Below are positions 12,002 through 41,100 of a stretch of DNA of 64,000 nt, in pieces. Position numbers and translations under genes: made by a program. This DNA is from Pontederia crassipes (Eukaryota > Streptophyta > Magnoliopsida > Commelinales > Pontederiaceae), in assembly GCA_030549335.1 (NCBI GenBank), contig JAUKPH010000017.1:3279001-3343000 (forward strand), in the 5' to 3' direction. How positions within the stretch are numbered: the first letter of the stretch is position 1; the number at the start of each line of letters is the position of its first letter. The notes below the pieces were generated by a model. That model had not been told where the DNA came from. It did not search any database and saw only the letters and a program-made list of their open reading frames with translations.

Positions 12002-15000
12002 ATGCGGACTCCACGGACTCGCCGGAAGCAACCACCGCCGTCCCTCTCTGAAGGCGCGAAACCCCGATGCTCCTCGCTGCCCTCGCTGCCGCCGCTGTCG
12101 TCGTCGCCGCCCCCGTGCACTCCTGGGTGGTCTGACGCACCTCCGGGGTCTGCGACTCCCCCCTCCAACAAGGGATTGACCCGGTCTGGAGGCTCCCTTG
12201 GTCCCGTCCAGCCCCCAGTCCGCCGGAGCCTACGCCTTTCTGCTACCTCTCCAGCGACCGGCGGGGATGCCACTTCGATGGCTAAATGCGTTCCGACCCA
12301 ACGGAGTAGCACCCGGGTTCCTCATCGGAGCGGCTCTGGGGATCGCGGAGAGTTGGCTTGCGGTGGCGCGGCAGAAGACGGAGAAGCGGCGGGAGAGGGA
12401 GAGGCGGCCCAGGTTAGGGTTTCGGGCTCGTCGGAGGCTGGGTGCTACATGAACTTGAGATCGGGTTCGAAGATCGCTCGGAGGGCGATCGTGGTGGCGA
12501 ACGCCGATAGGAGGATGGCGACAAGCGGAGGGGATCATCCCTTGGAGGCGAGTGTTGCAGAGGTGGTTGTGGACTTCACTGATGCAACGGTTGAAGAACC
12601 GGAGGAAGATGTGGATGCCTCGAAGAATGGGAGGAAGCGAGCGAAGACAAACGGAAGGAACGCTCCTGAAATGGGAGTCCCACTGAGCGAAGATGCATTC
12701 TCATCACGTGTAATTGTTGAAGAACACGACGATCGATCAAAGACAGTGCAGGGGTTTGTAGAGGAGGACTGTGTGAACGCAAATGATCAGATTTCAGTGC
12801 ATGCAGAGGTGGTTGTGGACTTCACTGATGCAACAGTTGTAGAACCGGAGGAAGATGTGGATGCCTTGAAGAAAGGGAGGAAGCGAGCGAGGACAAAGGG
12901 AAGGAACACTCCTGAAATGGGAGTCCCATTGAGCGAAGATGCATTCTCATCACGTGTAATTGTTGAAGAACACGACCACCGATCAGAGACAGTGCAAGGA
13001 TTTGTAGGGGAGGACTGTGTGAACGCAAATGATCAGATTTCAGTGCTTGCCAGCGATGTCAAGCAAGAGGACAAGTCTGATCGCGAGTGCCTTAGCCTTA
13101 GGTCAGGTTCAAGTCTCGTAGAATTCAGTCATGTTCAATTTCCTGTGAATGAAAATAAATTGAATTCTCCTGAAAAGGATAGGGACAGTTGTGTTATAGG
13201 ACGAACCGATGGTATTATGAAAGATGATAATGGTGTAGGAGAAACTATTTATGCTAAAGAAAAAGGCAAGAGCATATTGGTTGTTGAACAAGATGATAAT
13301 GAGAGTGTCAACATGGACATGGATATAACTGCTGGAAAAGATGCTGACACACATTTGGGAAATACAGATGGATTAGAACGTGTCAACGATAGTGGAATGA
13401 GAATTGTATCCAGAAGAGAAGCAGATAGGGCTAAGGCTAGGGCACTGGCTTCTAAATTTGCCTTCTTCAATGAAGATGTTATTGGACAGGGTGCTGACGA
13501 CGAAACATTAGAAGAAGAAGAACCAAAAGAGTTGATGCTTGATTCTGGAGAAGAGGATTGGCCAGGGCCATTCTCAACAGCCATGAAGATCATAAGTGAG
13601 AGGGATGAAAAGTTGAGAGCTCGCAATTTGAGTTCTTCCTCAAAGAAAGATGAATGTACCAAAGTGAGAATTCCATGGAAACCTTCAATGAACAACAGGT
13701 GTAAGCCCCTGGTTGGTTCATGTCCAACCCTCAAGCAAATTTGCATGAAACTTCTCGTGGATCATGCTGAAGAGATTGAATCTCTTGAAGGAATACCTGA
13801 TATTCTTAGGAACAAACTCGTATTAATGCTATGCCGTGCTAGGAAAATGAGCTATCGACTTCTAGATCTTCTTATGAGTAGTTCCTGTGCAGAGATACAC
13901 CTAAGTGATTGTTCATGGGTCACAGAAGACCAGATTCAGGAGATTTTTACCAAGTGCAACACTAATCTATTGAAGGTACTTTTTATCTTGACGTGTTTGT
14001 TTGTTTAATGGCCTATTCATTTATTTTTCTTTATGATGGTTCCCTAGTTTCTTTCAGTCAATCACAAGAAGTATAATTTACTTGTTACACTTCTTTTGTA
14101 TTTATATTCATATTAAGATGCATAATATACTCAAATTCATAGTTGCTTTTTTGGATAAAAAAAGATTACTTTTACCAATTTTGATGGTCACTACATGTCA
14201 GTTAGACTACAGATTGGCTTTCACATATGATGAGAATCTGAGATAAAAGTCAAATGAGCACAGTGCATATGAAAAGTTGGTTATGATTTTTATTGATTCC
14301 ATATGGAAACATGCTCCATTGTTTAACTTTGGAAGTCAGTTTAACCAATTTTTTTTGTTGGCAAAATGATTGAGGTTTTGTATCCCACATTAAACTTGTG
14401 TTGCCTGAGGTTTTCAGTACTATAATTGTTTGTCATGTCTCATGCAATTGCATTGGCTTTTGTAATTACGTCAATTGGTAGAATATATCCTTTGTGCATA
14501 ATTATGTAGTCATCATGGCATCTGTGGAGCTTGTGTTATGTAGGAAACTATCATTTTCAAATTTGAATTTGAAATCATCATGCCAAGAGTTGCTGAAATT
14601 TATAAATTGGATGAAATTTGATATTCAATGGATTCCTAAGAGAAATTTTTTTTATATTGAATTGGAGATGAACCGATATATAATTTCCCTTATTCTCTGT
14701 CTACGATTTCTCCAGTATTCTTAAGAAAAAAGTAGAGAAATAAAAATAACATTGCCTACCTTGGTCACCTTTTATTCTCTGGGCATCACTCAGTACTGCA
14801 AGCAAGTCTTTTTCTCAAAAAGTACTGCAAGCAAGTCTATAGCATACATGATGCAGAATCTATTATGTTATACCGATGCAAGTTGATAATATTCCGTAAT
14901 GTGCTGTGTGGGTGGCCAGTCGATCTATATATCAGACGAGATATACTAAGATCAACAAATTACTTCACTAAAAATTGGTTTGAAGGGATATTTCTATATA

Positions 15001-18000
15001 ACAAATGTCAGTGAATATGTTATCAATTGTTGTATGCACTTGTATTTTTTGGTGTCTAATGATGTCAAGGGATGGAGCACTATGGTTGTCTCCTCTTACG
15101 ATCTGGTTGATAAAAAAATAAACACAGTTAATTGCACTTGGATATCTGAAAGACCCAATATATTATTTTTCATATATGGATATATGTATGTCTTCTAATA
15201 TATCATATTTCCACCTGTACATGCCTTTCTTGTTTATGAACTTGTCAGGTGGTACAACTGGACTTGTCTGGACGATGTATGCCAGATTATATATTGCGTA
15301 CAACATTGGCCCAATCTCCAAATAGTTTGCCTATGCTAACTTCATTATCTTTGAAGGGTGCATATCGCCTTTCAGATAATGGTTTAAATGCGATCGTGGC
15401 TTCAGCACCATCCTTAAGATCTATAAACTTGTCTCAATGCTCTCTTGTCACTTCATTAGGAATTAAAAATTTGGCTGAAAATTTGGATGGTGCTTTGAGA
15501 GAATTGTATATTGATGATTGTTATAATGTGGATGCTATGGTAATTCTACCTGCATTGAAGAAGATAAAGCATCTGGAGGTTCTGTCACTAGCTGGTGTTC
15601 GATCCGTCTGTCACAAGTTTGTATGTGGTCTTATTCCTGCTTGTGGTTCAAACATGAGAGAATTTTGTTTGGCTGGATGCTGGTAAGCTACATTTCTCAA
15701 TCCACGTCAACCTGAACTATATGTTATTTGAAATGAAGAAAAAACTTGCTCTCTGGCCTGCTAGAGTTTGCACATCTGCCTCCTTTTTGTAAATTTCCAC
15801 TGCTAATACTACCAATGCATATATATTCCGTACCTTTCCATCAAGTTTTTCTACTAAAATTTGATATCAGATGACTTGTTTTCATAAGTGATTTATGCTA
15901 CATATACATACATATGCATATATATATACATACATACATATACATATATACATACATATACATATATACATATATATATGTATGGGTGGGTCCTGAGGCT
16001 GGGTGCATATAGTTTAAATGTAAGACTTTCATGGTAAATATGGTTATGCAAGGAGATGTGGTTCAATATACTTCTGTTGACGTTGCAGTACTTGACATTT
16101 ATACAATTCCAACTAACCAACTTTCCTGATCAAATGAGACTTGGCAAAGGCTGCGAATTGCAATTATTTTTATTTTCTTGCGGTGCATGGTCTATGAGGC
16201 AATTTCATATGAAGTATCGTTTCAGAAAAAAATTTCATATGAAGTAATTAATCTTCTTGGTTTTCGGTTGATGCAGGAAAGTGACTGATTCTTCCATCAA
16301 AACTATCAGTGAGCATTGCCCCTCCTTACGTGTTATTGATCTCAGAAACTTGAGCCAACTAACTGATTGTGCATTAAAGCATCTGGCAAATGGATGCCAA
16401 TCACTTCAGAAGCTTAAGCTCCGTCAAACCGCATTCAGGTTTCCTCGCTATTTATGTTTTGTCTTCTTGAAATAACATGTTACACTTTCCATTCTGTTCT
16501 AAAATAATGATATGATAATTGTCATCAGGTTCGTTAAAGCATATCATTACAACCTTGATATTAGATGTGTTTCTGTAGGCAAATCTAGGCTTAATAAATT
16601 ACACTATATGAGATTTAGTTTGTAAATTCTTTCCTTTTTGTTGCCATATAAATGGAACAATAGTTTGCCACATATGACTTGAGAAACTTTGGTGTTTAGC
16701 ATCCTAAAAAATTATTTTACATATTTTCAGGTATATGGGCTAGAATTTATGAAGTTTTAATAATGTCTTTTAATTTTATAAACTAACTAAAACATGATTT
16801 TCCAAGTATTCATATGTAATTAGATTTCACACATTTGAATATCATAATTGATCCTCTAGTTCGTAAGGAGGTAACCTGTGACATAATGTTTTTTTTAGGA
16901 GAAACCTGTGACATAATGTTGTGATAATTCAAGGAGCTTAACTAAGGGGTTTAATGCTGTAAGAGATAAAGAGCACACAAAAAAATGTAGTTCAGGAGGT
17001 CTAAGCAGTAGTAAGTCACTATGTAACTAAAACATGTGCAGCCACAACATGCATTCGTTTTGTGTACCATTTTCTTATTGAGCTAATGTGATGATGTATT
17101 ATATATATTTTTAAAAGTGGAGACATGTATGTATTTGATGTAAATTTAGCAACACTTGATGTCATTACTAATTACTTATTGAGATCTGTTGTATCTTTGT
17201 TGTTCGTTCGTTATTTATCTATAATAAACTAATTCTTTATGTATTTGAACCTATTATTTTACAGTGATGGTGCAGTTGCTGCATTTTTAGAAGCATCTGG
17301 AAGGTCTTTGATTGAACTTTCGCTGAACAATGTTAAACAGGTGTTTCATCTCATGCAGTTTCTTGTGTTTTAGAAGCAAGTATTAGTTACTTAAATTCAA
17401 GGTTATCTTTTTTAGGGAACAAATTCAAGGTTATCAAGATCATGGTTTTGATTGTCCCACTTGGGGTCTATGGTTTCCATCAAAATTTGGGATCATTTTG
17501 GTAGGATCGTAAGATTTAGATCGTAGGATCGGTAGTACCAATATTATTTCAATTTTTTTCCAATTTTTAAAATTTTCATCAAGTGTGGCATTATTTTTGG
17601 AGAAATAAAATTAAGAGGAAAATGGTTGGTTATAATTGAAATTTAAAAAAGATTCTTCACAAATAAATTTAAATATTAATGTACATTAAAATTTATTTAT
17701 ATAATGGTACTACATAGTAATCATATTATTGTCATTTTCGTCCGCTCATATTAAACTACTATTGTATAAGTAATGTATACACATTTTGTAGAAAGTCTTA
17801 GTAGGATAACAGGTAAGTTAATATTATCTATAATCTAAACCATTATAAATGTATTAAAAGAACTAGTTTTTTTATTTTTTTATGTCAAAATTTTTTTTAT
17901 TAAATAGATAAGATCTTACGATCTTCGATCCGCTTAGGATCTTCTTTTGATCTTCAATAAGATCCCGATCGTGATTATCTCGATTAAATTTACTGATGTG

Positions 18001-19726
18001 CTTGAATTTTACTTGAGGATACCATTTTAAATGTACTATTATATGGACAATTTGGACAAGTAGGCATTATGCAGTAGACAAGTTTATACCCAGTTTTAGT
18101 GATGCCTATGTGCCATGGGATTCCTAATAAGACAAGTTCAGTCATACACTGAACATATGACTTTGTAAACCATTTGTCATTTGTTAGGTAGCATAGACCT
18201 CCATGATGTTTATATATGGAATTGTTGAGCAATATTTTGAATGAATTTGTGCATTCATATTTCTCGTTTTCTACTTTTGGTTCTAACTAGGGGTGGATTT
18301 TCAAGTCCTAGTTTTGGTCCAAATTCAATATTGTTCTAGATTCATCTTGGCCCCAAATTTTGAGTGGGATGAAGATATCTTAGCTTCCCAAAACTTGGAG
18401 ATCAGAAATCCATCTTAGAATGGAAATCTGAGACTGCAAATGCTTGAGCATTGGTTGAGAGGCGATTGTGGATCATGGTTAGAGGAGGAAGCAATATTGT
18501 AGGCAGGAGGGCTATCCTTGATGGCTGATTGAGAGTGGAGGGAAGTTCAAGTAATATTGGAGACAGAAGATGAGGAACATCGGGGTTGGTGGACTGGCCT
18601 TGGTTGTCGACCTGGAGGGAAGTTCAAGGAGGCAATGTTTTCTGTTCTCTCTCTCTCTCTCTGTTTATTTTTGTTTGAGGGAAGAAGGCAATGTTTTCTT
18701 GAGTGGAAGTCAAGATTGAAGCTTGGAGGATGGTCCCTGGTGCCATTGGATTTTTTAAGATATGAAAGAAAGGATGAAGATGGTTAAAATTTTGCACTTT
18801 ACAAGCATAATTGGACTGAGGAACACAGTGTTACCATTCAATCAGTTCTGATCCAATTCCAAATTGGTGACGAAAAGCCATCTCATTCTAGTTCTCCTCT
18901 CAAAAATCTTGACACATCCAGGTTATAACAAGGTGGATTGTTGGTCTAATTTTGCCCATGATTGTCAGGATGTTTTGACCAAATGTTCGCCTCTATTATT
19001 AGGAAATTCTATTGTTTTAGTTTATTTGACTTTGAACATGCTACCTGACTCAACTGTGTGATGGAACCTAGAGAACTACACTAGAGAAACCTGATAAATT
19101 TTTTTAATAAGAATCTCCCTTAAATGAAATTAATAAGGAACAAGGAGATTCATTTTCTGAATTCTAGTTGAGTACATAGTCAAATTTTTATTTTGGTTAT
19201 GTCAGTTTTCCATAAGTTGTATTATCCATCCACTGTTTTCATTTAGTTTGTATGATTACTTTGCTGAATGTAGGTTGCAGAACATACTGCTCTAGCCATC
19301 TCCCGACAATGTTCAAATTTGCAGAATCTGGATCTTTCATTCTGTAGGGAGATGTCTAATGAAGCACTTGGCATAATAGTTGACAGCTGCTTATGTCTAC
19401 GGGTTCTAAAATTATTTGGTTGCACTCAGGTACTTTTGACCAAAAAATATCTCTGACAAGCAATGGAACTATGAGGCTCTTGCATGAGATAGTTTACATT
19501 TTCATTGGGTCCCTTGGTTGCTGATGTGGCTCAGACGATTCCCACTGGGCAAAGCTTTTGGTTGGAATTTAATGGGCCTTCTTCTTCTTTATTCTTTATT
19601 AATGGAATGATAATGTCCCTGCAGGTCACAGATTTATTTCTCAACGGTCACTCGAATTGCGAAGTCAAAGTAATTGGATTGCAGGGGCAAGTATTAGGTG
19701 AAATTGAGATACCAGATTTTCTCTAA
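12002..19726 (+). CDS. RAD7/AMN1-type leucine-rich-repeat protein
   Basis: Six exons give 967 residues: 12002-13975, 15249-15682, 16277-16438, 17265-17340, 19274-19429 and 19625-19726, all GT-AG with agreeing phases. Residues 1-640 are polar and low in structure, with basic patches such as GRKRAKT, an 82-residue unit repeated twice (186-349), and SRREADRAKARALASKFAFF near 466. From about 640 to the end there are cysteine-containing leucine-rich repeats (HLSDCSWVTEDQIQ, INLSQCSLVTSLGIKNLA, LRNLSQLTDCALKHLANGC, LDLSFCREMSNEALGIIV). This layout fits plant homologues of yeast Rad7, which works with Rad16 in a ubiquitin ligase for global nucleotide-excision repair. The repair role is known for yeast and only inferred here. 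The 5' UTR and exon 1 are GC-rich. Introns carry small insertions and a TA-repeat. It could also be a generic AMN1-like LRR protein. Confidence 0.9.
12557..13048 (+). repeat. Two 246-bp tandem repeats in LRR exon 1
   Basis: 12557-12802 and 12803-13048 are head-to-tail copies with exactly 82 codons each, so the frame is kept. Each begins with AEVVVDFTDAT and ends with DCVNANDQISV. About ten of 82 residues differ. The unit is acidic at both ends with a basic GRKRAKT/GRKRART core, a possible nuclear-localisation signal. Such high similarity suggests a recent duplication. Confidence 0.92.
14792..14838 (+). mobile_element. 11-bp insert with 18-bp duplication
   Basis: TTTTCTCAAAA (14810-14820) is flanked by two perfect copies of AGTACTGCAAGCAAGTCT. 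The insert ends like the L1-type tail (ctcAAAA). It lies in intron 1 of the LRR gene. Confidence 0.65.
15898..15985. repeat. CATA/TATATA microsatellite
   Basis: An impure run of (catata)n and (tata)n lies in intron 2 of the LRR gene. It is a simple sequence repeat with no coding content. Confidence 0.85.
16201..16246 (+). mobile_element. 14-bp insert with 16-bp duplication
   Basis: TCGTTTCAGAAAAA (16217-16230) is flanked by two perfect copies of AATTTCATATGAAGTA. The insert ends in an A-run, consistent with a truncated LINE. It is about 30 bp upstream of exon 3 of the LRR gene. Confidence 0.62.
16873..16920 (-). mobile_element. 12-bp insert with 18-bp duplication
   Basis: TTTTTTAGGAGA (16891-16902) is flanked by two perfect copies of AACCTGTGACATAATGTT. 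On the minus strand it reads TCTCCTAAAAAA, almost the terminal TCTCCTCAAAAAA of the L1-type element at 42.3 kb. It lies in intron 3 of the LRR gene. Confidence 0.68.
17393..17435 (-). mobile_element. 13-bp insert with 15-bp duplication
   Basis: TTTTTTAGGGAAC (17408-17420) is flanked by two perfect copies of AAATTCAAGGTTATC. On the minus strand it reads GTTCCCTAAAAAA, an A-tailed end. It lies in intron 4 of the LRR gene. Confidence 0.65.
17480..17990. repeat. Possible MITE with GATC-rich ends
   Basis: In intron 4 of the LRR gene, the left part carries 'taggatcgtaag' and 'gatcgtaggatcgg', and the right part carries 'cttacgatcttcgatcc' and 'taggatcttc', which are partly reverse complements. The centre is AT-rich. 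The ends and target duplication could not be fixed, so this is only a candidate inverted-repeat element. Confidence 0.35.
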
Positions 19727-21050
19727 ATCTCTAGTCCCATGGGTTTGTATAGATTATTGAATCATGAGCCCTTTGTTTTATCAAACTCTTGGTTCAGTAA
19801 TCACACTGTCTACTTCCTGAAGTGTAAGCAGGAGTAAAATGATCATGGCTTGACTGTTGTAGTCTTGGCATTTCTCTATGCACACAAAGTAGTTCTTGCA
19901 GCAAAACCAATTTTCCTTGTAATCCAAGGATATGCCATGATGTTCTTTTTCTCTTATGTTAGAACAATGAAAGGTTTGTGCCTCTTGCCATGAGTGAGCG
20001 GATAAAATGATTGCGTGAATTATGCTATTATTATTTTCTTTCCGGGTGCTTCCTTTGGATCGTGGAGGTCAATCCAAAAGCATCCTATAGCTTTCAACTT
20101 GTAAGCGGCATTCTTCTTCTTTCTGTAGAAGACAGTATTCGTTGCTGAAAACTTTGGGCTTCCTCCATTTTGATACTTGGTTCGATAAAAAGGTGTCTGG
20201 ACGTCGATTGCAATATCTATAAATTTAGGGCAATTGAATTACGTTAGCGTGAACGGTGACTTGCTTCTTATTATTTAACTTGAAGTGGTCCCTTAACGTA
20301 GTGTTATGTCATGCCAAGCACAACTTGTTGCATGCTGACCTTGACAATAAGTGGCTACATGGTCTGGTAGCATACTCATCAGTATTATACAGTGACCCCC
20401 TCAGAGCAAAAACGTGTCCATTATTGTCGTTCATTTTTGTTTTCCCGTTATAAAAAGAGGTCGAAGGCCTAATATTAAAAGTATATATAATTAAAAAGAG
20501 CAAGCAACCTTTTCTTCGATTACATGGCTAAAAAGATAAAGATTAAAAATAAAATGCATGTTATTTTATTGATGAAAATCGGATATCTAAATATTCAAAT
20601 GGAGGAATGACTCACTGTAGAAGTCAGATTTTTTTTTCTTCTGTTCAATTACGTTCAATAAGAAAAAAACTGATATGATGCCATCATGTAACTCATAGAC
20701 TTTTCTACGTAAAACAACACTTCTACTTATCACCATGAACGCCATATATGGGCGTCATCTAGGCGAGGTCCAAGACAACCTTATATTCCATTAATTCAAG
20801 TAAAATTCACGAATTAGCTATCCCTAACTGAGGAGATCTAATGTAACACTTGTTCGCACATTTTTTTAGGATGCGTTTGAATTGAGGGTAATGGTGAAGT
20901 TAAAATTTAACTTTTTTTTTCCTTTGCTCTTTGTTGGATGAAAAATTTAACCTCCTTTCCCTTCTCATATATTTTTTTAAAGGGAAATATGCTTAGATGA
21001 ATAACAATGACTTGACCCCTTCTCATATTAAAAAAACACACTATAATATT
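19727..21050. other. 3' UTR and intergenic DNA after LRR gene
   Basis: The first few hundred bases probably hold the 3' UTR of the LRR gene. The rest is AT-rich with no supported gene; short frames at 20256-20503 overlap on both strands and show no domain. Confidence 0.45.
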
Positions 21051-21059
21051 ATTAGTTAC

Positions 21060-21535
21060 ATCCAATGTTATAAGATCCGACCCGACCAAGTCGGATCGGT
21101 TGGACCGGATCGAACCGAATGGTCGGACCGAGTAATATAAATTAATAAAAAATAAAAAAGTCCAAGTGACTATTATAATATTATTAATATGTAACATATT
21201 ATTTAGCAAAAATATAATGTAATAAAGTAAGCATAAATTAAATTATCAATTGAATATTTTTTAAATAAAAAATCTTGTGAATAATTATAAAAAAATAAAG
21301 ATATCAATGAAATTTTATATATGTGATAAAGAATAATATTGAAACATAAATTTAAGTATATCTGTATATATGATATTCTAAAAAAAATTAATAAGTTTTG
21401 TACATTTTATTTTTTTTTACATTTTACAACTTGACCCGGCCGGATTAGCCAAACTCGTCGGGTCGGCTGGTTGAACCCGAGTTTTGACCGGATCAAAGCG
21501 GGTCAACTCCATGATCGGATTTTAAACGACCCGCG
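21060..21535. mobile_element. Candidate hAT-like remnant
   Basis: The left end reads 'caatgttataagatccgac' and the right side holds 'gatcggattttaaacgac', an imperfect inverted pair. Both flanks are rich in GGGTC/GACCC and CGGATC words, like the subterminal repeats of other hAT elements in this window, and the middle is AT-rich. No clear 8-bp duplication was found, so the boundaries are approximate. Confidence 0.4.
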
Positions 21536-24650: not shown

Positions 24651-24727
24651 AGCCGAGCCATTCTCTTTTAGGAAAAATAAGGGGTCAAGCCAAACGAATA
24701 AAAAAACAAATTTATTCAACAAACAAA

Positions 24728-24820
24728 AGGAGAGAGAGGGATTCGAACCCTCGATAGTTTTTTGTTTTGAACTATACCGGTTTTCAAGACCGGGGCTATC
24801 AACCACTCAGCCATATCTCC
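24728..24820 (-). tRNA. trnS-UGA: Plastid-derived tRNA-Ser(UGA) copy
   Basis: On the minus strand it reads GGAGATATGGCTGAGTGG, an anticodon arm CCGGTCTTGAAAACCGG with UGA, a long variable arm, and GGTTCGAATCCC. This is the plastid trnS-UGA. The acceptor stem has one mismatch (GGAGATA where GGAGAGA is expected). It sits inside nuclear transposon DNA, so it is a nuclear plastid insertion and probably not a working nuclear tRNA. Confidence 0.88.
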
Positions 24821-24924
24821 CAGAGGTAATTTCTATTTTATTCCTACAAATAGAATATGACTATATGAGATGATGCACTAATCATTTGTAGGAACTCAAG
24901 AGGAAAATCGATGTTTTACTACCA

Positions 24925-25041
24925 ATCACATCTATTTCATTAGGAATTGATGATCTTTTAACCATCCCTTCTAAGGGATGGTTAGTTCAAGATGCTGAAC
25001 AACAAAATTTTATTTTGGAGAAACACTATCATTATGGGAAT
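24925..25041 (+). pseudogene. rpoC2: Plastid rpoC2 fragment
   Basis: 39 codons read [20 protein letters not shown] and then [10 protein letters not shown], a strongly conserved N-terminal part of the plastid RNA polymerase beta'' subunit. It is a fragment with no start or stop, flanked by unrelated plastid pieces. Confidence 0.85.
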
Positions 25042-29452: not shown

Positions 29453-30230
29453 TAGCATTAACACGAAATTTCATGACGAAAACAGGATTCTTTTGTAGGA
29501 TCAATTATTTTGAGAGCAAGACCAGGTGGATTCAGGAGTGCTTACTATTTTTTTTTCTTTATATTTCTTGATATAGTTTTGTACGGACGAGCTTTGCAAT
29601 GTAAAGTTACAGAGTTGCAATATGCTAATATTCTATACCATTACCAGGTCTTTTTTTTTTCTTCTTACATATTACTTCACATATCTTAAAATTATTACTA
29701 TCAAAATCAATGCAGGGATGGGCAAAACGTTGTGGTTTACTGACGCTCAGTCGTTTCTAATGCACACATAAAATAACAATTTTATTGGGTTAAGTTCTCT
29801 CATAAGAGAATTACAATGTTTCAAAATTCATTCAAACTAAGACTTCATAGCAATTCATAAGGGAAAAAAAAACAGGACACGTATCTTATATAAAATTAAA
29901 TTAATTTTGATTCATAAACAACGAAACCTCGGAAGACGTCTTTTATTGGGAATGTGTTTCATCAAAGAATATATGAATTTTGAAATGAGCTAAGATTCAA
30001 AATATTATTTATAAATGTTCACTTTTCAAACTTTTACCTTAGGAATATTGTCTGTCAACATTAAACAAGTTCAAACAATATTAGAACTTGGTACTCACAA
30101 TTAGCTTATATGAACATGTTAGTTACATTACCCACTGTTATCAGTAGGGGTAGCCTAGGGGAAATCCCCGGGAACTAATTGCAAGAATTTTTCTCTCCGC
30201 AAAGGTTAAGACGGAGTCAAAAGTAATTTT
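29453..30230. other. 3' UTR of ANTH gene and intergenic DNA
   Basis: The start is probably the 3' UTR, followed by AT-rich DNA with no gene or clear repeat. Confidence 0.5.
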
Positions 30231-30461
30231 TAAGGGACTGTTTGACATCTCACAAGAACAAATACATTCTATCCCATTTTATTTCTACAGTGAGAACAAA
30301 TGAAGAATTCATTTGTTCTTGGGTGGAGTTAGAACCTAGATGTCCCTGCTTTTTCTTGTTCTTGATGTGGAGTCCACATCATATTTTTAAACTGTGTTTG
30401 GATGAAAAGTTGAGAACAAGGGAAATGTTCTTATAATGTTTCTCTACCAAACAACTCCTAA
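30231..30461. mobile_element. Tourist-like MITE with TAA duplication
   Basis: A 225-bp insert (30234-30458) flanked by TAA on both sides. The ends are GGGACTGTTTG and, on the other strand, GGAGTTGTTTGG, matching the GGGNNTGTTTGG end of Tourist/PIF-Harbinger MITEs. Inner inverted words such as 'agaacaa'/'ttgttct' recur. It has no coding capacity. Confidence 0.8.
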
Positions 30462-31152
30462 GTTATTTTGGGGATCAGTACAGCGATACGTACCTCGCTT
30501 GCCAGTGTTCCGAGGGCTCTTGCTTCCATATGATCGAGTTATCTTACTTATTTATATTTTTTTATTTTAATTCACTTTTGTAACTTAATTTGATTTTATA
30601 ATGTGATGTCAAAAAAAAGTGTACTCCTCTAACTTATTTTTCACATCACACGTCACGAAACTATCTCTTAAAAATGTGGTACATTAGGAAAGACTCGTCA
30701 ATGTTCCCCTAATGTAATTATTATATTTACTCAATAAAAATTTCAAAGCTTCTCAAAATTTTGCATTGTGTTCAAGCGTTGTGTGACAATCACAAAGCGT
30801 CTGCTCCGTCTAGGTGTCCATTTGTTCACAAACGTCCTCACCGAAACGTCCGTTCGAAATCAATCGCCTTAAAATTGTGACATTAAGAAAGTGACATAAG
30901 AAAACTTCCGCAAAGCACAAAAAAAAATTTGTCTAAACGATGGGTCGGTCGAGCGAAAAACGATCCGTGACACAACCTCATCCCCGAAATAATAATGATT
31001 ATTTAAATTTTAATACTAATAAAATAATTTTATTTTTTAGGAAATTATTATATGTGATTCTTAATGTTGTATAATATAATATTATATTGTACTATTTTTA
31101 ATTAGTTATATTTTGAATGATTTAATATATATATATATATATTATTTTAAAA
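30462..31152. other. Intergenic DNA without clear features
   Basis: AT-rich, with a TATATA run near 31125-31140. No gene or element is supported. Confidence 0.45.
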
Positions 31153-31335
31153 TGTTTATTTTATTATTTTTGATAAAGGAGGAGGGTTGTGTTAAGCCCC
31201 GACAGCCAGCGTAAAATCCTATCGAATCTCATGAACATGAATCAACGAATGAGCGAAATGGCATCGTATGATCCATGTAGTCGACCCCACCTAGTGGGAT
31301 AAGACTTTATTGTTGTTGTTTATTTTATTATTTTT
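31153..31335 (+). mobile_element. Short RTE-derived insertion with 19-bp TSD
   Basis: The insert 31172-31316 (145 bp) is flanked by identical 19-bp copies at 31153-31171 and 31317-31335. It starts GATAAAGGAGGAGGGTTGTG, passes through CCCCGACAGCCAGCGTAAAA, and ends with the RTE tail GACCCCACCTAGTGGGATAA and a TTG repeat. The first part is not found next to the tail in the coding copy at 56909-58167, so this looks like an internally shortened, non-autonomous RTE. Confidence 0.88.
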
Positions 31336-32054
31336 ATAAATTGTTAATTTTAAATGATGGGGGATTCTTGATCCATGAGGAGAATCGAAAATCCGTGAGG
31401 ATTGGAAGCAAGGACAAAACTAGTCCTGTACGGTGTAGCAGGCCCAATAGGCGGGTGCCACTCCTAGTTCTGTCCTTCCCATATTTGCATTTACAGCATT
31501 AGAAGTATAGACAAGTTAATCTTTTAAAAAAAATTCTTTGGCTTATAGGCCAATTCATAATACATGAACTGATGAACAGATGTGTCAAATATCAGATCTC
31601 GTAAGTGTGAACATAAGGGGATTCATTCAAAATTCTAGGATACTACATAATAGTTTCCCTTTGAACCAACGAAAATTTGCTAATTCCATAAAAATAAAAG
31701 CTCTACAATCAACATAAGTTTTTTTTCCCCCGGGTTCGAGAGTTTGTATACACAATCAGGATGGTGTGTGATATATATGAGATAAGATCCATGGAGTTTT
31801 TTCAGCCAGTTCATGAATTAACAATATCAAATAGATTATCTGCTCGGAGCTGCATGTCATGTGCCATATATTTAAATGATCCTAGAGAATATCAACCAAG
31901 ATTCTGGATCTTGTCTTCGCCGCAGCAATTCCTTATCTGAATAATTGTCAACACCAGGTTGACCATAAGAGTCCCAAGTTCAAAAAATCTAGGAAGTTTC
32001 ATCGCAAAGATCACTGTTGAGGACATGCAGAGGTTTTGTGGCGCTTTTCATCCA
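31336..32054. other. Intergenic DNA and 3' UTR
   Basis: No gene frame. The part nearest 32054 is probably the 3' UTR of the minus-strand gene that ends there. Confidence 0.45.
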
Positions 32055-35000
32055 CTAAATAGAACTTCCGGTAGAACCAGATGAATGAGTTAGAACTGTT
32101 TCCACTCTATCTATCGATGCATGCAAGCGTCCATAGTTCAGGCTAAGGATAGGTTCTCCAGTGCCAACAGCCCTGCACAGGAAATCATAGATCAAGGTTC
32201 TGAAGAGTAAAGAACTAAGGATCATTCAAATTATTGTTACCCATGAAAACAGAAAGTTATATGTCATAACCATAGATAGGGTTCCAACGTTCTTGTTTGT
32301 GGGCATAAGTTAAATCATCTTGGCATGCATACAATGACACATGAACTTCAATAGAGTTATGCAGATGGTAACTTACCCTTGAATCTCAGGAAGGACGTAC
32401 TCTGCCCTCCAACCAATCCTTAGGTCAACACCTGGGCACAAACCAACTGATGTTTTATTCCTAATCTGAGAAATTCCATCTCCTCCCAAGCATGTAGAAA
32501 GCTTCCATTTCCATCCAATTGCATTTAAATGGAAATTATGACCAATTCCCACCTGCATACCAAAAGTCACTCAACAAGCATAGCATAGTATTGTTGGACG
32601 TAATAAAATAACCTATTGATAATCAAGCTACTTTTATTGAAAAAGACTAGGACTATAAAAAGGTATGTTCATCTTGTGTCATTGAGGTCTAGACCTGACT
32701 TGAAGCTTTTCTCAGTTCAATTAGATTAAATTTTACATAGTAAGACATGTTAACTAAGCATTAACTTAACATGACTGGATGTTTCTCCATGACTCTTTTA
32801 TAATCAAGTCTAATAAATCTATTGACAATTTTGGATATTCATGAAAAGAAAGATGCTTGAGCAAGTCATGAAAATATGAGTGACTACTTTCTCAAAAAAG
32901 AAAAAGAAAAAGAAAATATGAGTGACTTGGCTCATGTGATGTATAACTTAGGTTAGAGAATTTTTTTAGGATAATTTAGGTCAAGAATTAATACATTATT
33001 TTCAATTTATTGTAAATATCTTTTTTTAAGAAGATCAATACATCTGATCATATATTGCATCAAAGTTTCTTGATCAAAGTTCAGTGGACTTAATTATTTT
33101 ATTTGAAAATGATGTCTCATGTATAAACTACTCATGGAAGTCGAACTATAAACTATTATGGATTTTGTTTGAAAATGGTAAATGGGTTATGTATGGACCT
33201 TGAAAATTTGATGATTAAACTTGATTACTCTTACAGATTAGAGGTATAGACCATTTTCACATGCCTCTCCTAAACTGAGTTCTTTTTCTCGTCAATTAAA
33301 CCAGGTAATTTTTTCATATACCTCGCTTAAACCAACAATTGAATTACTACTGACCTCCAACGAATTATTCTAACTATTCTCTTTACCTCTATGTTATTAG
33401 CGTTAATGATCTTTATGCTTTCAAGCATAAATGTTTTTTTGAGGGGCTCAAGAAGACATATTGTTGATTTTTTTTAATTAAATTTATTTAGCACTTAAAT
33501 TCCAAGATTTTATATTTTGAATTTATAAGGCTTCAACCAAAAGTATGGACAAGTTTGACACCCTTCTTAGAGTACTTAACATAGAATTATTTTAACCCAA
33601 TCATAAACAAGAAAACTGCTCTGATCTTAATCCACTTTTGGTTCACAGTAGGGTTTGTACTCAAACCATTCATTTTTTTTCACCTTCTAATTGTTGTTCT
33701 CTCACCTATCCTTAATAATACCTTATAATCACTCATGTAGCATTGCAAATTATCATCAAATGCTCCTAAAAAAAGTATCATCAAATAATAACCACTGATA
33801 CGAGAGCAGTTTAGCTAGATTAAAGTTTTCATCGTTATCTAATCATATTTACTCCATTTGCATTCTCTGATTCTCCTTTTTACGTGAGTACCAGAAACAA
33901 ATAACGTCTTACGTCATCTTAAAATGTTCTCTGAAGCCATTTTAGAATTCAAGATTTGGATGTAATCGACAAGGGAAGAGAAATGACATTGTGCTGTTGT
34001 TGTGCATGTTTATAAGGTGACTTCAGCATAACTTTATCTGTTTCTTCATGTTGTTGAATTGGATGTTCATCGCTGTGATCTTAATAGTGGTTTACTCTCA
34101 TTGATACATTTGCAAAGAGTTTATTCCAAGTTTTCTGTTCCTCTTCCTCATTTTTTTTTGGCGATAAGTCTAATCTATTTTTTTCACTTCATACATGTAT
34201 CTACTCTTTAATATTTTTAGTTGAAACTGACATCCATCTCGTCAATTCATTACCTAGAGATCAAGTTAGTGCTTAACTTCTGATAAGATCATCATAAATT
34301 TATTGTCTTGCCGGTTCTATCATACGGAAAAAATAGCTGCCATCTAGTGACATGTAAAGATAACAATGCACATGAAGAGAAGCAAAACAAAAGCACACAA
34401 CTTGCAAAAGAATTCTTCAAATTATTTTTGTTCATTATGGGCAAATTCGTCATTACCTAACTACTCTAGTAACAAACAATTTTGCACAAAACTTTGTGCA
34501 CAACCTATTCATGATGATAACGAGAGTTTAGGGTGATTGAATGAAAACCTGGATATTCAGATATTTAGTAAGAGGAATCTTCTTGGAAAGAACACGTATA
34601 TCACCATGCAATGGCTCATATATTAGCTTCCACCGCCTATCAAGGCCTGAGGGTTTAAAGACTAGCTTGGCATGGAAGTCATTGGCCTCCAAGTTATAGA
34701 ACTGCAACCAAAGGAAAAACAAGAAGGGAGATTTTCAAGAGAAAGCTCTAGGGCTAAGATATACATGACTACCTATATGCCAGCAAGGACAATTAACAAA
34801 AAAAAAATTCCAATTAACAAACAACAAGAGATAGTAGATTGGCTTCTGGAATTATGATAATTTGACTAAAAGGAAATGTACAGAGATAAAAATAACCGTA
34901 ACAAAATACGTTGTTCTCTCCTCCTTACATACCTAAGATCATGACAACTCTCTTCCCCTCCATCCACACCCACAACAGTGAACCAGTGTGCTAGCCTCAC

Positions 35001-36461
35001 TCCCCTGAGTCCCCTCCTTATTTCCTTCCATTCCTCCAATGAAACCATACCAACCCTACATCCCTCCTGCACGGAAATGTGGATCAACATGTTAGCCCAT
35101 CACCCTTTCCCTCCTCACCTCGTTGAAAATTTTTCCAATCTCATTATCCTTTCATTCCCCACTTGGGAGTGCATGTGTATCTTCTCAATTTACATTAACA
35201 AATTCTATCTCCCAACCCATTTTAGAAGACATACAAGACATGTTCTATAACAACAGAATTTAACATGTTATCCTCTTGCCCTGTAGGGAAATATCTACTT
35301 CAGTGGAAAGACTAAATAACCCAGATTGACTTGAGGATCCATCTATATTCAGTTGCCAGATTCCTTTTCGTATAATATGTCTTGGGCTCCACAACGCATC
35401 CTGTGGTTTTCTCCCGACCCACTAATTTGCCACACTCAAGATTATCATTGTTATTGTGGCCAATTTGCTTACAACGGTGATGAAGGGGGAAAAACCAATG
35501 TTGAGGCTTTGGCCGTACTATCCACAGCGCAAGCATATTAGCTTAGCTTAAGAATATAGCAAAATGTGCTCTGAAACCGCACACACACCAGTATATTGGA
35601 TGTCCCTATGAAACCTAGAATCTGCAAATGCTAGATGGAAGACAGTTGCACTTCCTATTTAAACAAGTAGACAACATAAGTACCATCCTCAATTCTCGGA
35701 AACATCAAGGTGCGACTGCAAAAAAATGTTAGGCATTGACGCATTGTATTGAACAATCACATATTTCACACAACAAGCCGTTTTCTCCATGCAACATGTT
35801 GCCCTTTTATATGAAGTAGTGTGAAATGATAATAAAATCTTTTTAGGCTTAGCATGTTGCTCTTTTGTATAAAATAGTGTGATGATTATAAAATCTTTTC
35901 TAAACTTAGCAAGGAAATTAAATTAAAAAGAAAAGTTCCCAACCTAGGCAAAGCTCCTGTCTTTGGACATAACGAAGTTTGTACCTTGATTAATGAAATC
36001 ACTTCTCCTCCAATGAGGCTATAAGTTTGTTCCAGATTTCCAGTTATGTCTAAGTTCACACCTAAAAAATATGCTGTATTCTCTATCTTTTCTTTTCTAT
36101 CAGAAGTGTCCCAAAAAGATAATTCCAGCGTTCATAGAACATGGCTGGCATCTCGGAAGAACTTGTTGAAATAAAAAAAAAGGCGAAACTAAGAGTAAAA
36201 CCTACCGATATTTTTACCGCCACGGTATCTAAAAATTAAGAGAGGAGTGGTGATTTGTACCTCAAGATTAAGGCCGAGGCGGACGCCCTGCAGCTCCTTA
36301 CGAAACTTGAAGAAGAACTCGGAGGGTACCAGGTTGATGTTATAAAGCTCGTCGATAGGCAGCGGCTCGCCATCGCCTTCCTCCTGCCCCGGCCGGCGGC
36401 CCCCGAACCCCGCCGGCGAATTCGACGTTCTTGTGGTGGTGGTGGTGATAGTAGAAGCCAT
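32055..36461 (-). CDS. Plant protein of unknown function, five exons
   Basis: Exons in order: 36461-36218, 36061-35985, 34701-34549, 32552-32377 and 32172-32055, giving 255 residues with all phases matched. The N terminus (MASTITTTTTRTSNSPAGFG) is Thr/Ser-rich and could be a targeting region. The body has alternating hydrophobic stretches, for example NLVPSEFFFKFRKELQGVRL, AKLVFKPSGLDRRWKLIYEP, GIGHNFHLNAIGWKWKLSTC and LCPGVDLRIGWRAEYVLPEI. That pattern suggests beta strands, perhaps a membrane barrel, but this is inference. I recognise the sequence as a conserved plant family without an assigned role (possibly the DUF7781 group). A nearer donor at 36261/36260 would remove the end of exon 1, and skipping exon 2 would then still join in frame, so a 215-residue isoform is possible. 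Introns are rich in small insertions. Confidence 0.8.
32870..32927 (+). mobile_element. 26-bp A-rich insert with 16-bp duplication
   Basis: 32886-32911 reads actttctc followed by an A-rich run, flanked by two copies of GAAAATATGAGTGACT at 32870-32885 and 32912-32927. A direct duplication around a poly(A) tract is the mark of target-primed reverse transcription, so this is probably a severely truncated LINE insertion. Confidence 0.65.
33751..33786 (+). mobile_element. 14-bp A-rich insert with 11-bp duplication
   Basis: GCTCCTAAAAAAAG (33762-33775) is flanked by TATCATCAAAT on both sides. The insert ends like the L1-type elements here (ctcctNAAAAA). It lies in an intron of the 255-residue gene. 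Confidence 0.55.
34790..34821. repeat. 10-bp A-rich insert between 11-bp repeats
   Basis: CAATTAACAAA occurs at 34790-34800 and 34811-34821 around AAAAAAATTC. It could be a micro-insertion like the others, or slippage in an A-rich tract, so support is weaker. Confidence 0.4.
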
Positions 36462-36661
36462 CTGCTTGTCTACAGATCGAGAACACAAACGGAGCACCGC
36501 ACTCCCAAAACGAAGTGGGGATTCAAAATCAACAAATTAAGAAAAAAAATAATGGAAAGGAAAATACCGCTTAAAATAAAATATAGTAATATATAGTTCA
36601 AATACTTTTGTTAAAACATTCTCGGCTGATTTAATTTAGTGTTATTTTCTTTGACCATCCT

Positions 36662-37151
36662 TAAATTATCACATCTCATATTACGAATTTTATTTTTTTA
36701 GTCCCTAAATTATGACGTTTTTTTTTTCAATTTGATCCTCATTATTATTTTTTTCATATTTGTGAAAAGTCCATTATAACTCTGTCTTAAGTGTTAATCC
36801 ATTTTTACATAAATAATATATAATAATAAATATAAAAAAATAACGAGATACCATGTGTCATCAGAGAGGAACGCATAGGGGGACGGCGACCCCCACCCTC
36901 TCTTTCCCTGCGCGGGAAAGAGAGGGGGGAGGGGGATCGCCGGCCCCCTCTGCATCGACGACGATGCAGAGGGGGCCGACGACACTTAAGGTAGTGTATA
37001 ATGAATTTTTTATAAATGTAAAAAATAAAAAATAACGAAGAAGTCGAAGAAATTGGACGGAATGATCAAATTGAAAAAATCGTGATAATTTAGGGACTCA
37101 AAAAACGAAATTCGTAATTTAAAGTTAAATATAAAAAATTGTGATAATTTA
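36662..37151. mobile_element. MITE with roughly 85-bp inverted repeats
   Basis: Left and right ends are reverse complements over about 85 bases: TAAATTATCAC, then 'attacgaattt', 'gtccctaaattat' and 'ttcaatttgatc' on both. The 490-bp interior has a GC-rich 'ccctctctttccctgcgcg' palindromic core. Long TIRs suggest a Mutator-type MITE. No clean target duplication was seen. It starts about 200 bp upstream of the ATG at 36461, in the likely promoter of that gene. Confidence 0.65.
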
Positions 37152-38172
37152 GAAATAATAAGTGGAAATAATAGCTAATAGTTTCAGAAAAAAAATGTAA
37201 GTTACTAGAAACTTTAAAGTTTTCTTTTTTCTTTATCCAGATGCCAATAGAAAGTTCGAACCCTAAAATCAACTAAAGAAAGATTTAAAAAATTGTTTAT
37301 TAAACACAAATACGATAATATTCACTGAAAAATAAGTAATATAAAATTTATGGGAATATTTTCGGAATACATTACGGTTTTCTTATTTTTTTTAGACTAA
37401 TTAATTATATTTATTTGATCCGTATCACATAAGACAATATACATTGACGTACTATGCTAGAAAATGGTTTTCTTAAATATTTATTTCAAGATTGTATACG
37501 GCTGTTTTATTTTAACAAAATCGTTTTTATTACAAAGAGAACAGCATCCTGATAAACTGAAAAATGACGAGATTAAAAATTTTGTATTTCTTCAAATAAA
37601 CAAAATTAATATTTTTTGTTACAGAAAAAAAAAAGATGAATCGAAAAATGGAAAGACATAATTTTCATTGGTCAGAAGCCCATTAGTACTGCACAGTCTG
37701 CACCACGCTTTGTTTCCATCAAGTCATCAATAATATTATAGCTTTAGAAGTCAAATAAATAAATCATGATTCGGCATTTTGAAATCAATACCTATAAATC
37801 TTAAGAATTAAATAAAAGGAATTAAATTATGGGCATCACTGTTACCACTCCATCATGCGAGTGCTGAAAGAGAACTGCTCCAAGTGGAATCTTCATGTTT
37901 CGAGGGATTAAACATTTTACATTAATCTTCATGTTTCTTTTTCTTGAAAAAAAAAAAAGAAAACAATGATGATTTAGAGATTCCAAGTGGAATCTTCTCC
38001 TCACTTACAAGGTCCTCATTGTCCATTACTTGTGTTGGTACTGCAAAAAGAAACTTAAATTTTGTATGAGAGCTTACAATTGATATATCAATCTGATGGA
38101 AAGTGCTGCCAAATAACTCCTAAACTAGCAAAGAAGATGATGACCTTGATCTCATTGAGCTCTCAAGAGCAG
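37152..38172. other. AT-rich intergenic DNA
   Basis: No gene is visible. The end next to 38172 should be the 3' UTR of the DUF1279 gene. There are two short repeats of 'tggaatcttc' near 37885 and 37988. Confidence 0.45.
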
Positions 38173-41100
38173 TTATGCTGAAAGCAACGTCAGTCCCAGG
38201 AATAGCAACAGGGCTAATGCCAAACATAGGCCAACTATTGCGGCGAAAGCCTGTAAAAGGAAAACAGAGAAAGAAATCACAAAGCAGAAAAAAGGAAGGA
38301 AAGATATAGGCATTCAAATCATGTTGGAGGAGGTTGAGCTTGAAAGAGAGGAAAGATGCAGATGCTAGATCTGAATTCCCACTCACCTTTCCCTCGGATT
38401 CAAAGTCGAACTTAGCAGTGAACCATGTTAGTCCTTTAGCAACAACTGGAGCCAATGCAAGAGCTCTGGAAAAATAAGCCGATTTTCAGATTCACTAAGG
38501 GGGAATCAAGACGAAGTGCAGCAGCTCGTCTGCATCATTCTGCAGTTAAATGTTCTCAAAAGTTCGTGCAGTGAGTCATATCAAGCAGAATGAATGATTT
38601 CTAATTAACGCAAAAATAGGTAGAAAAGGTATCACAGAAATGTAGATTTGAATAATATAATGTGGAACTAGGTCCGTTTCAGTAGTTAGAGTTACGATTT
38701 CTTGATCAAGTTTAGGCAACAAAACTTACCCCCCAGCTCGCACAATCTTTGTGACTTGGCTGCCAGCCCACACCATTACCATGATTTTCAGAAACCTATA
38801 TAATCACAGGAAGACTTTCTGCTCAATTCACAAAGCACTGAAGTATAAGAGCAAGTTAGCAAGCTTGTCATTGACCTTTCAACTGCTGCGAGATATCCCA
38901 TTCTCCCAGGGTTTGGTGAAAAATAAAACCTGAACAAAAATGTGATTAGATACATCAAAATACATTGACTTCGTTACTGAGGTAGTGGAAAATGGATCAG
39001 GTAAGAGGTTCATCTAGCTAGAGGTGTGACCTGTCGGACCCAACCACAACCCGGTAGGTGGTTGAGTCAGGTGCAGATTGGAAATGCCAGTCCGATTCAA
39101 CCCATTCAATCCGACCCGAAGCCTGAATATTTTTTACTTTTTTTCTGTTGTCATTTTTTATTTAATTTTAAGCTTATATTTGATTTATGATTTGAAAATA
39201 TATTGAATTAATATTTCAAAAGTTGAAATAATAATTAAATATTGGGGAAACTTATTTAAGCTTTAGAAATTATAATGAATATGAAATAATTTTGTATATT
39301 ATATAATGCAAAAAATGATGGTCGGGTGATTTGACCTAAGTCGGGTTGGATCAGATCCAATATCAAATTTGAGAACAACCCTACATCTAGGGTCACCAAA
39401 AAACTTGAGCAAAACCAATACATGAGTAGTTTTTTTTCTTAGGGGAATACATGAGTAGTTTAACTTTTGGTTTCCAACGCTTGGGTCACTAAATTACATA
39501 ACATCACAGTCGTTCTCCAATAGATTACCAACAAAAATAAGATGCATAAGTGCCCATGACGTAGCCATGCCGCATCAAGAATTTGTGATAAAAAAATATT
39601 ATTACTGTATTTCAAATTGTTGTTTTACCCTTTTATTCCCTTCATCTTTAACTCCAAAGTTTCTTTTTTATCATGACTTCCTCTTTTCATGTCATTGACT
39701 CCTTTTTTGGCCAATCACACTCTGATGCACTCCCATTTTAGTCAACCATAGCTTGATGACGCTTTGATGTTCCAGTGGACTTTATTCTCCGTTCATTTTC
39801 CCTTCATCACCCATTTCCCTTCTCCTCTTGCTTTGCCATTGTTTTTTTTCCCTTTTCTGGAAGTGCTCATTCTTTTATTAAATTCTACCAGTGACTTTTT
39901 CTTTTTGTTCGTAAGGTATTCTTATTTGTAAGGTATTCCTACAAAAAAACAATTCACAGGATAAAAATCTTCTAACAAGAAATGCGTACTAGCTAAGCTA
40001 TTATGTCCAATTTTGGTGTGATTTCTTCTTAGAAAGGGTGCCAGATAAAAAGATAATAATCATGATTGCAGAGAAGCTTGTTTTGAGGATCCAACTAAAC
40101 AAGAACTAACAAATATTTTTTTTTTTTTGAGGAGAAAAAGGATGACTACCAAATTGTGTGGTTGTCATCCAGGTATATATATATAGAACTAACAAATATT
40201 ACCTAAATTGAAATAGTGGTAATTGAATTAGGTTGAGATCAGAAACATTCTTTTTTTCTTTTAACAGAGAAGGGCATAGAAGACACTCTTACATCACATT
40301 TCTCGTTATATGTGACAAAAATGAGCATTCTACGTGAGATATCCAACTAAATTCTAACATTTCCTTTGTCCATTTAAGAATTTAAAATACCATGATCTTT
40401 GAAGAGGTCATTGTTATTTTACATACTCAATTCTAACATAGAACCCGATCAACTTTTTCCTTGTTACGATTTGAACAAAGAATGCCAAAATCACTTTGAC
40501 AAAAAAAATATTATGAGGCTAGCTAAGCCAGTGGTATGGTCCATTTTTATAAAACAGAATCACCTTACCCGCATTAAACAGATAATATATTTCTGACTGT
40601 AATTATTACAGTGAAATTCTCCACATTAAGAACTACAAAGCATAAAAAAACTTACCAAACAACTAGAAAGGTTGTCAAATAATATGCAGTATTAAGTAGT
40701 CCATATGACAATATTCCAGCAACTCCATATTTCTTAAGCTTTTCAACCAATCTGTGGAAATAATATAATAATAAGAAAGTTTATCAGATACATTGAAGCA
40801 AACATAAGATCAACTCAAACAAAAAGAAGAACCTGACTACTTGAAATACAACACAAATTATTTCTTGTATTTTCTTCTCATGGAGGAACTAACATAATCC
40901 ACTCACTCATGAAAGTTTTTCGGAAGGTTAACCCAAAGGACAATAAAGGAAAAGACAGAAAGGTGTATTCCTGTTCATTAGTTCTAAAGTGGCTTTCTTT
41001 CTGTGCAATGGTCTAGAGGTCCCGAAAGCTACGAGTTCTGATTTTATCTTTTACTTGGATGCTCTTTTACCAAGTTCTTCATGTTCTAATTTTCTGTAAT

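What the first reader, a model, noticed from the sequence alone, without database searches (positions are those of the whole stretch)
14792..39461. A recurring class of 10-26-bp LINE-like micro-insertions, each with its own target duplication
Inserts of 10-26 bp, each with an A-run at one end, are bracketed by perfect 11-18-bp direct repeats at 14810, 16217, 16891, 17408, 32886, 33762, 34801 and 39433, all inside introns. Several inserts read TCTCCTAAAAAA, GCTCCTAAAAAA or CCCTAAGAAAAAA in the tail direction, close to the terminal TCTCCTCAAAA of the L1-type elements in this same window. A slightly diverged ninth case lies near 32947-32985. This looks like target-primed reverse transcription that stopped after the tail. 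Such scars are normally dismissed as indels, so their number may be underestimated.
Basis: partly seen in the sequence, partly recalled or inferred. Interest (0 to 1): 0.75.

Follow-up and report, generated by a model that had tools for sequence, protein, structure and literature searches.

The report
Aborted L1 tail micro-insertions, plant genome
Tiny insertions of about 5-7 letters plus a run of A, each flanked by a 10-18-letter duplication of the target, recur in this monocot plant genome and look like L1 jumping-gene insertions that quit almost at once, a kind of scar normally read as an ordinary small indel.

Summary
The repeats are there and are not chance: six tailed, exactly duplicated micro-inserts in the window against a shuffle mean of 0.015. 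Two further members were added (32943-32989, 53623-53662); one listed site (34790) does not fit. Each insert is 4-8 pyrimidine-rich letters plus an A tail (A runs broken by one G counted as tail), directly before the second copy of the duplication. The CTCCT-type leaders equal the 3' end of the local L1 family (hairpin, TTTTTCTCCT or TTTTTCTCCTC, poly A). Genome-wide, TCTCCTAAAAAAA occurs 2806 times against 315 for the reversed word. Of the first 30 such loci, 14 are longer L1 ends and 12 are duplication-flanked micro-inserts. In a second genomic copy of the region, two micro-inserts sit where the window has the single-copy site: direct empty-site evidence. The window's own nine are shared by both copies in some form, so older. 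Best reading: target-primed reverse transcription that copied the tail and a few linker letters, stopped short of the 3' hairpin, and was sealed, often at a T. The process is known in outline; the narrow stop and the abundance look new. The hairpin as cause is inference.

The parts
14792..14838 (+). micro-insert: TSD 14792-14809, insert TTTTCTCAAAA 14810-14820, TSD 14821-14838
   Evidence: shared with C4 copy
16201..16246 (+). micro-insert: TSD 16201-16216, insert TCGTTTCAGAAAAA 16217-16230, TSD 16231-16246
   Evidence: C4 copy reads TCGTCTC plus A run
16873..16920 (-). micro-insert: TSD 16873-16890 and 16903-16920, insert 16891-16902 (rc TCTCCTAAAAAA)
   Evidence: C4 copy reads TCTCCTCC plus A run
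17393..17435 (-). micro-insert: TSD 17393-17407 and 17421-17435, insert 17408-17420 (rc GTTCCCTAAAAAA)
   Evidence: shared with C4
32870..32927 (+). micro-insert: TSD 32870-32885 and 32912-32927, insert ACTTTCTCAAAAAAGAAAAAGAAAAA 32886-32911
   Evidence: in C4 the place of the tail is a (TA)n array
32943..32989 (-). diverged micro-insert: repeats 32943-32962 and 32971-32989, core rc TCCTAAAAAAA
   Evidence: core present in C4, repeats further diverged
33747..33786 (+). micro-insert: TSD 33747-33761, insert GCTCCTAAAA 33762-33771, TSD 33772-33786 (one mismatch)
   Evidence: C4 copy has lost part of copy 1
39417..39461 (-). micro-insert: TSD 39417-39432 and 39446-39461, insert 39433-39445 (rc CCCCTAAGAAAAA)
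   Evidence: C4 copy reads CCCCT plus an unbroken A run
   Evidence: shared with C4, one base different
53341..53412 (+). 48-bp L1 3' end truncated inside its hairpin, TSD GTGGAGGATGAT 53341-53352 and 53401-53412
   Evidence: shared with C4
40102..40200 (-). 67-bp L1 3' end with whole hairpin, TSD 40102-40117 and 40185-40200; insert absent from C4
41786..41966 (+). 157-bp L1 3' end, TSD TTTTGCTAAATT; insert absent from C4
42299..45523 (-). 3.2-kb L1-type element with a zinc-knuckle ORF1-like frame, 3' end GGATGAC..GTCATCCTTTTTCTCCTC-A8; absent from C4
   Evidence: no TSD found
50870..50910 (+). empty site: single copy AATCTACTGATAGTGTT; C4:1471606 has the duplication plus rc CTTCTAAAGAAAAA
50970..51010 (+). 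empty site: single copy TAGACCCATGTAC; C4:1471728 has the duplication plus rc CACTTTC and 11 A

Best explanation
These are the shortest products of L1-type target-primed reverse transcription. The endonuclease nicks one strand; the nicked end primes on the poly(A) tail; the reverse transcriptase copies the tail and mostly 5-7 nt of the single-stranded pyrimidine linker, then stops, for the CTCCT type about 4 nt short of the base of the 3' hairpin. Second-strand cleavage about 15 nt away and joining, often at a terminal T that can pair with the copied T-run, give [TSD][Y-rich 4-8 nt, A(n)][TSD]. Shown: the insert and TSD anatomy, the genome-wide excess of one word, the match of CTCCT-type inserts to the L1 end, and two empty sites. 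Inferred: that the enzyme is this L1's, and that the hairpin (or enzyme bound to it) sets the stop.
For: Chance excluded. TCTCCTAAAAAAA 2806 vs 315 for its reverse; with a purine in front, so not a longer copy of this L1 end, 644 vs 125. Of 30 consecutive loci 14 are longer L1 ends, 12 have an identical or near-identical repeat (0-2 mismatches) within 3 nt of the word and its tail, 2 are doubtful (L028, L043), 2 have none (L030, L045). Repeat next to A7+ runs, L1-like upstream excluded: 11 of 17 after TCTCCT (16 of them the same loci) vs 20 of 479 after other 6-mers, themselves including real members; 12 vs 26 and 10 vs 18 at the looser and stricter cut. Exact-TSD scan of all fetched DNA: 26 sites with a 4-9-nt non-A part vs 4 in reversed sequence. 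Hand-curated 23 sites: 15 have 6-7 nt, 20 have 5-7, range 4-8. TSD median 15 bp; last base T in 23 of 35. L1 linkers 9-12 nt in 20 ends. Hairpin folds better than shuffles in 4 ends, z -2.9 to -4.2. Two empty sites.
Against: No compensatory change supports the hairpin in 19 L1 ends; its outer stem is almost invariant. The endonuclease motif is weak: TSDs start with more A than simulated (mean 1.71 vs 1.03, P 0.007), but the boundary rule absorbs A and TT/AAAA is not evident. The 14 curated sites outside the window match the L1 linker no better than pyrimidine-matched strings (p 0.16). The 53341 copy ends inside the hairpin, so the hairpin is not an absolute block. The uncurated scan also has 20 sites at 10-33 nt vs 10 in the control. 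Human ORF2p holds 15 nt of single-stranded tail between active site and stem-loop (PMC10830416, section read), more than the about 4 nt left uncopied here. Empty sites could in principle be precise losses by recombination between TSD copies. Ten arbitrarily placed 10-kb stretches held no clear micro-insert.
Confidence: 0.78

Rival explanations
1. Same reaction, other templates: the L1 enzyme starts on the poly(A) tails of any polyadenylated RNA (mRNA, SINE) and stops early; the pyrimidine letters are ordinary plant 3'-UTR ends rather than the L1 linker.
For: Many leaders are pyrimidine-rich but not CTCCT (TGTTTC, CACTTTC, CGTTTC, TCCTCGC); outside the window the match to the L1 linker is not beyond pyrimidine content (p 0.16).
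Against: One exact word equal to the L1 end occurs 2806 times vs 315 reversed; 12 of 30 such loci are micro-inserts; 53641 equals the L1 terminus.
Confidence: 0.15
2. Double-strand-break repair: staggered breaks filled in and joined with filler give tandem duplications with 10-15-bp inserts, or DNA-transposon excisions leave two TSD copies plus filler.
For: Rice excision footprints carry filler averaging 13 bp (PMC4423477, passages); patch-mediated duplications in rice are recalled from the literature (Vaughn and Bennetzen, not read).
Against: Filler has no reason to be 90% pyrimidine, oriented, A-tailed and to recur as one word; flanks of about 120 bp on each side match the nine window leaders by only 3-6 of 6-10 nt (no chance control run); duplications of 10-18 bp are longer than usual DNA-transposon TSDs (recalled).
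Confidence: 0.05
3. A distinct minimal retroposon: a short stable RNA whose 5' end lies 5-7 nt before its A tail, mobilised by L1, rather than a truncated copy.
For: The narrow leader length (20 of 23 curated sites 5-7 nt) and identical 11-bp inserts at L031, L047 and L050.
Against: Leaders vary in sequence; I know of no such RNA; longer copies of the same 3' end with TSDs exist side by side.
Confidence: 0.03

Closest known systems
5'-truncated L1/LINE insertions made by target-primed reverse transcription
   Same: TSD of about 15 bp, A tail next to TSD copy 2, truncation at the 5' end, short homology at the 5' junction (human pattern in PMC2912911, passages)
   Different: Only 4-8 nt of element remain, at a nearly constant position, and such copies are about as frequent as longer ones for the word tested (12 vs 14 of 30)
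Human 120-bp poly(T) insertion in NF1, said by its authors perhaps to be a severely truncated Alu, L1 or processed pseudogene (PMC3219598, passages)
   Same: An insertion of little more than tail by the L1 machinery
   Different: Single disease allele, long tail, no fixed leader, no genome-wide class
Plant L1 lineages with a conserved 3' hairpin, ME1 monocot 1a (PMC3747384, passages)
   Same: A hairpin near the terminal poly(A)
   Different: That paper reports CGAG 3' of the stem and a UCU loop with compensatory changes; here the linker is TTTTTCTCCT(C) and no compensatory change was seen. Micro-insertions were not mentioned in the passages seen

Membership tests
L1-type TPRT insertion | target site duplication of roughly 7-20 bp | tested here: met
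   35 curated sites, 10-18 bp, median 15
L1-type TPRT insertion | A tail directly before TSD copy 2 | tested here: met
   9 of 10 window sites (34790 fails)
L1-type TPRT insertion | 3' end identical to a LINE of the genome | tested here: met
   met for the CTCCT type; for other leaders only pyrimidine-richness shown
L1-type TPRT insertion | endonuclease site TT/AAAA | tested here: inconclusive
   excess of leading A (mean 1.71 vs 1.03) but no clear motif
L1-type TPRT insertion | empty target site with one TSD copy | tested here: met
   two sites; the nine window sites are shared in some form with the homeolog, so untested for them
L1-type TPRT insertion | dependence on L1 ORF2 endonuclease and reverse transcriptase | not testable with these tools
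   needs a biochemical or cell assay
SINE | body of 80 bp or more with a Pol III promoter (recalled) | tested here: not met
   window inserts are 10-26 bp
Repair filler or transposon-excision footprint | insert copied from nearby flank, or a short transposon-type TSD | tested here: not met
   flank matches only 3-6 nt in nine window sites, without a chance control; duplications 10-18 bp
Stringent-type L1 3' hairpin | hairpin supported by compensatory changes | tested here: inconclusive
   outer stem GATGA/TCATC paired in 19 of 19 (two G-U), 0 of 7 pairs with a compensatory change; energy z -2.9 to -4.2 in 4 sequences

The most novel reading that the evidence does not exclude
Plant L1 initiation has a built-in abortive step, like promoter escape: the enzyme, braced against the 3' hairpin, often makes a cDNA of tail plus 5-7 nt and lets go, so many or most retrotransposition attempts leave a 10-20-bp scar of fixed form. 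Such scars, perhaps in the tens of thousands genome-wide (my extrapolation), would be a readable record of failed L1 attempts and a major source of small indels, duplications and A-rich microsatellites in introns.
Probability: 0.35. Interest if true: 0.8.

Novelty: new variant of a known kind. Interest (0 to 1): 0.62.

Why it matters
If right, the success rate of LINE retrotransposition, normally inferred from copies long enough to be annotated, can be read from both outcomes in one genome: aborted scars and completed copies. It gives a natural footprint of where the reverse transcriptase stops relative to its own hairpin, which is directly testable in vitro, and a mechanistic source for a class of small indels with duplications that are likely to be filed as anonymous. 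The tails may also seed microsatellites: the homeolog has a (TA)n array in place of the tail at 32870.

Tried and rejected
Site 34790 was rejected because its A-run lies at the wrong end. Repeats of the AATGATAACTT kind and GC-rich tandem arrays were set aside as ordinary tandem families. Filler copied from flanks was looked for and not seen (no chance control). A TSD for the 3.2-kb L1 was sought and not found. Covariation for the hairpin was sought and not found. A scan with a fixed 6-10-nt leader cannot give lengths; the scans allow 0-80 and 0-60 nt. One search, which allows one mismatch, found 77 of 2482 A5+ runs with a TSD and agrees in shape, but its boundaries run 1-2 nt into the insert at several sites and it includes the motif-picked loci. 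The reversed control was not stripped of those loci. The 26 include three C4 copies of window sites, one site read on both strands and at least three AATGATAACTT satellites. The curated list of 35 was made by hand. Left out: C4 copies of window sites, L028, L043, satellites and a dozen or so weaker or longer-leader candidates (L047:2638, L033:1376, L034:1217, L035:891, L028:1690, L025:2327, L048:217 and 634, L047:2010, L041:913 and others), so its tight length range is partly a choice. AG and AAG before the A run at 16201 and 39417 are counted as tail, as the C4 copies suggest. The planned series of genome counts for other leader lengths could not be run: the machine stayed busy (last try).
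Full report
Setting. The window is plant nuclear DNA. It lies at G000:C17:3279001-3343000 in a 1.13-Gb assembly of 43 contigs. Genes include an LRR-like gene at about 11.8-19.7 kb (+) (my reading of frames; Pfam LRR matches below cut-off), an AP180-like gene at 27.8-29.4 kb (+) and a DUF7781 gene with matches at 32.4-32.6 and 36.2-36.5 kb (-).

Observation. All eight listed places have the stated form. Exact direct repeats around an 8-30-bp insert with a terminal A/T run of 4 or more: 6 in the window, against mean 0.015 and maximum 1 in 200 local dinucleotide shuffles. One listed site (34790) has its A-run at the wrong end. The diverged case (32943-32989) and a new one (53623-53662) were added.

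Anatomy. Read towards the tail, the inserts are TTTTCTC-A, TCGTTTC-AGAAAAA, TCTCCT-A, GTTCCCT-A, ACTTTCTC-A, GCTCCT-A, CCCCT-AAGAAAAA, TCCT-A and TCTCCTC-A: 4-8 mostly pyrimidine letters, then A. The window and other stretches (one on contig C9) hold longer pieces of one L1-type family. These end in a hairpin (GGATGAC..GTCATCC), a pyrimidine linker TTTTTCTCCT or TTTTTCTCCTC, and poly(A). In four of them the end folds better than shuffles (z -2.9 to -4.2). Across 19 ends the outer stem is almost invariant, without compensatory changes. Against sequences in front of other intronic A-runs, the nine window leaders score 45 of 57 for the L1 end; the null mean is 20.8, maximum 38 of 5000. Against a null that keeps the pyrimidine pattern, seven window leaders not found by a motif search still stand out (p 0.006), as do all 23 pooled (p 0.0002), but the 14 outside the window do not (p 0.16).

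Genome-wide. TCTCCTAAAAAAA occurs 2806 times; the reversed word, which the tool counts as control, 315 times. With a purine in front the figures are 644 and 125. I read the first 30 loci, all from 0.5-11.1 Mb of contig C1, so not a random draw: 14 are longer L1 ends; 12 have an identical or near-identical repeat (0-2 mismatches) around the word and its tail, within 3 nt; L028 and L043 are doubtful; L030 and L045 have none. If that share held genome-wide, about 1,100 copies of this one word would be micro-inserts; that is extrapolation. Among A7+ runs in all fetched DNA (L1-like upstream excluded), 11 of 17 preceded by TCTCCT and 20 of 479 preceded by other 6-mers have an adjacent repeat (12 and 26, or 10 and 18, at other cut-offs). 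An exact-TSD scan of the fetched DNA (354,390 bases) with motif-picked sites removed gives 60 sites. By length of the non-A part: 26 at 4-9 nt, 20 at 10-33, 13 at 34-60 and 1 at 1. Reversed sequence gives 22: 4 at 4-9, 10 at 10-33, 6 at 34-60 and 2 at 0-3. So the excess is sharpest at 4-9 nt. In ten arbitrarily placed 10-kb stretches I saw no clear micro-insert, only one 47-bp L1 end, so density seems to vary strongly.

Empty sites. A 95%-identical match on C4 proved to be a second copy of the region from about window 10 kb onwards: 37,159 aligned bases, 4.46% substitutions. The nine window micro-inserts are present there in some form (32870 with a (TA)n array in place of its tail, 33747 partly deleted, 32947 further diverged), so they predate the split of the copies and give no empty site. 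Two others are present only in C4: at C4:1471606 (CTTCTAAAGAAAAA) and C4:1471728 (CACTTTC plus 11 A). The window has the single-copy target at about 50,893 and 50,984. Precise loss by recombination between the TSD copies is not excluded but is the less simple reading. The inserts of the longer L1 ends at 40102-40200 and 41786-41966 and the 3.2-kb element at 42299-45523 are absent from C4.

Mechanism. Duplication of 10-18 bp (median 15), tail next to the second copy, A-leading target (mean 1.71 leading A against 1.03 simulated, P 0.007) and T as last base of the duplication in 23 of 35 curated sites are what target-primed reverse transcription with T-homology at the far junction would leave. 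Non-A length is 6 or 7 in 15 of 23 curated sites and 5-7 in 20. The L1 linker is 9-12 nt in 20 ends (most of these were picked by the same word, and the search pattern required pyrimidines). For the CTCCT type this puts the stop about 4 nt short of the hairpin. Human ORF2p binds a stem-loop upstream of the tail and 15 nt of tail between it and the active site (PMC10830416; passages and one section). That makes a hairpin-set stop plausible but does not predict the 4-nt distance. The cause of the stop is therefore inference.

Known work. Ten paper searches, in an open-licence library only, listed no title or abstract on such a class. The nearest are a 120-bp poly(T) insertion in human NF1 (PMC3219598, passages), general L1 truncation and microhomology (PMC2912911, passages), short junction insertions at somatic human L1 deletions (PMC7058536, passages), plant L1 hairpins (PMC3747384, passages) and rice excision filler (PMC4423477, passages). 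Subscription literature was not searched, so absence from print is not claimed.

Noticed in passing
C4 about 1448.4 kb, copy of window 32870: Where the window micro-insert has its A tail the homeolog has a (TA)n array, with a further 49-bp tandem duplication: tails may seed microsatellites.
   Followed up: partly
12556-13050: In-frame 246-bp tandem duplication in the long first frame of the LRR-like gene, also present in the C4 copy.
   Followed up: no
42299-45523: L1-type element with an ORF1-like zinc-knuckle frame and no long ORF2 frame there in the list; absent from C4, possibly non-autonomous.
   Followed up: partly
24727-24821 (-): tRNA-Ser (anticodon tga), the only tRNA found in the window; may be an organelle-derived insertion.
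   Followed up: no
2246-2276; L016 about 5900-6280; L018 about 2890-3400: A short motif AATGATAACTT(G) recurs in irregular direct arrays at three unrelated places.
   Followed up: no
window from about 10 kb on, versus G000:C4:1406001-1506000: Collinear with a second genomic copy at about 95% identity, with many large insertions in either copy, including about 10.3 kb in C4 opposite 37.9 kb: a recent duplication or polyploid pair.
   Followed up: partly
57300-58190 (-): Reverse-transcriptase fragment (Pfam RVT_1), by recall of the RTE kind.
   Followed up: no
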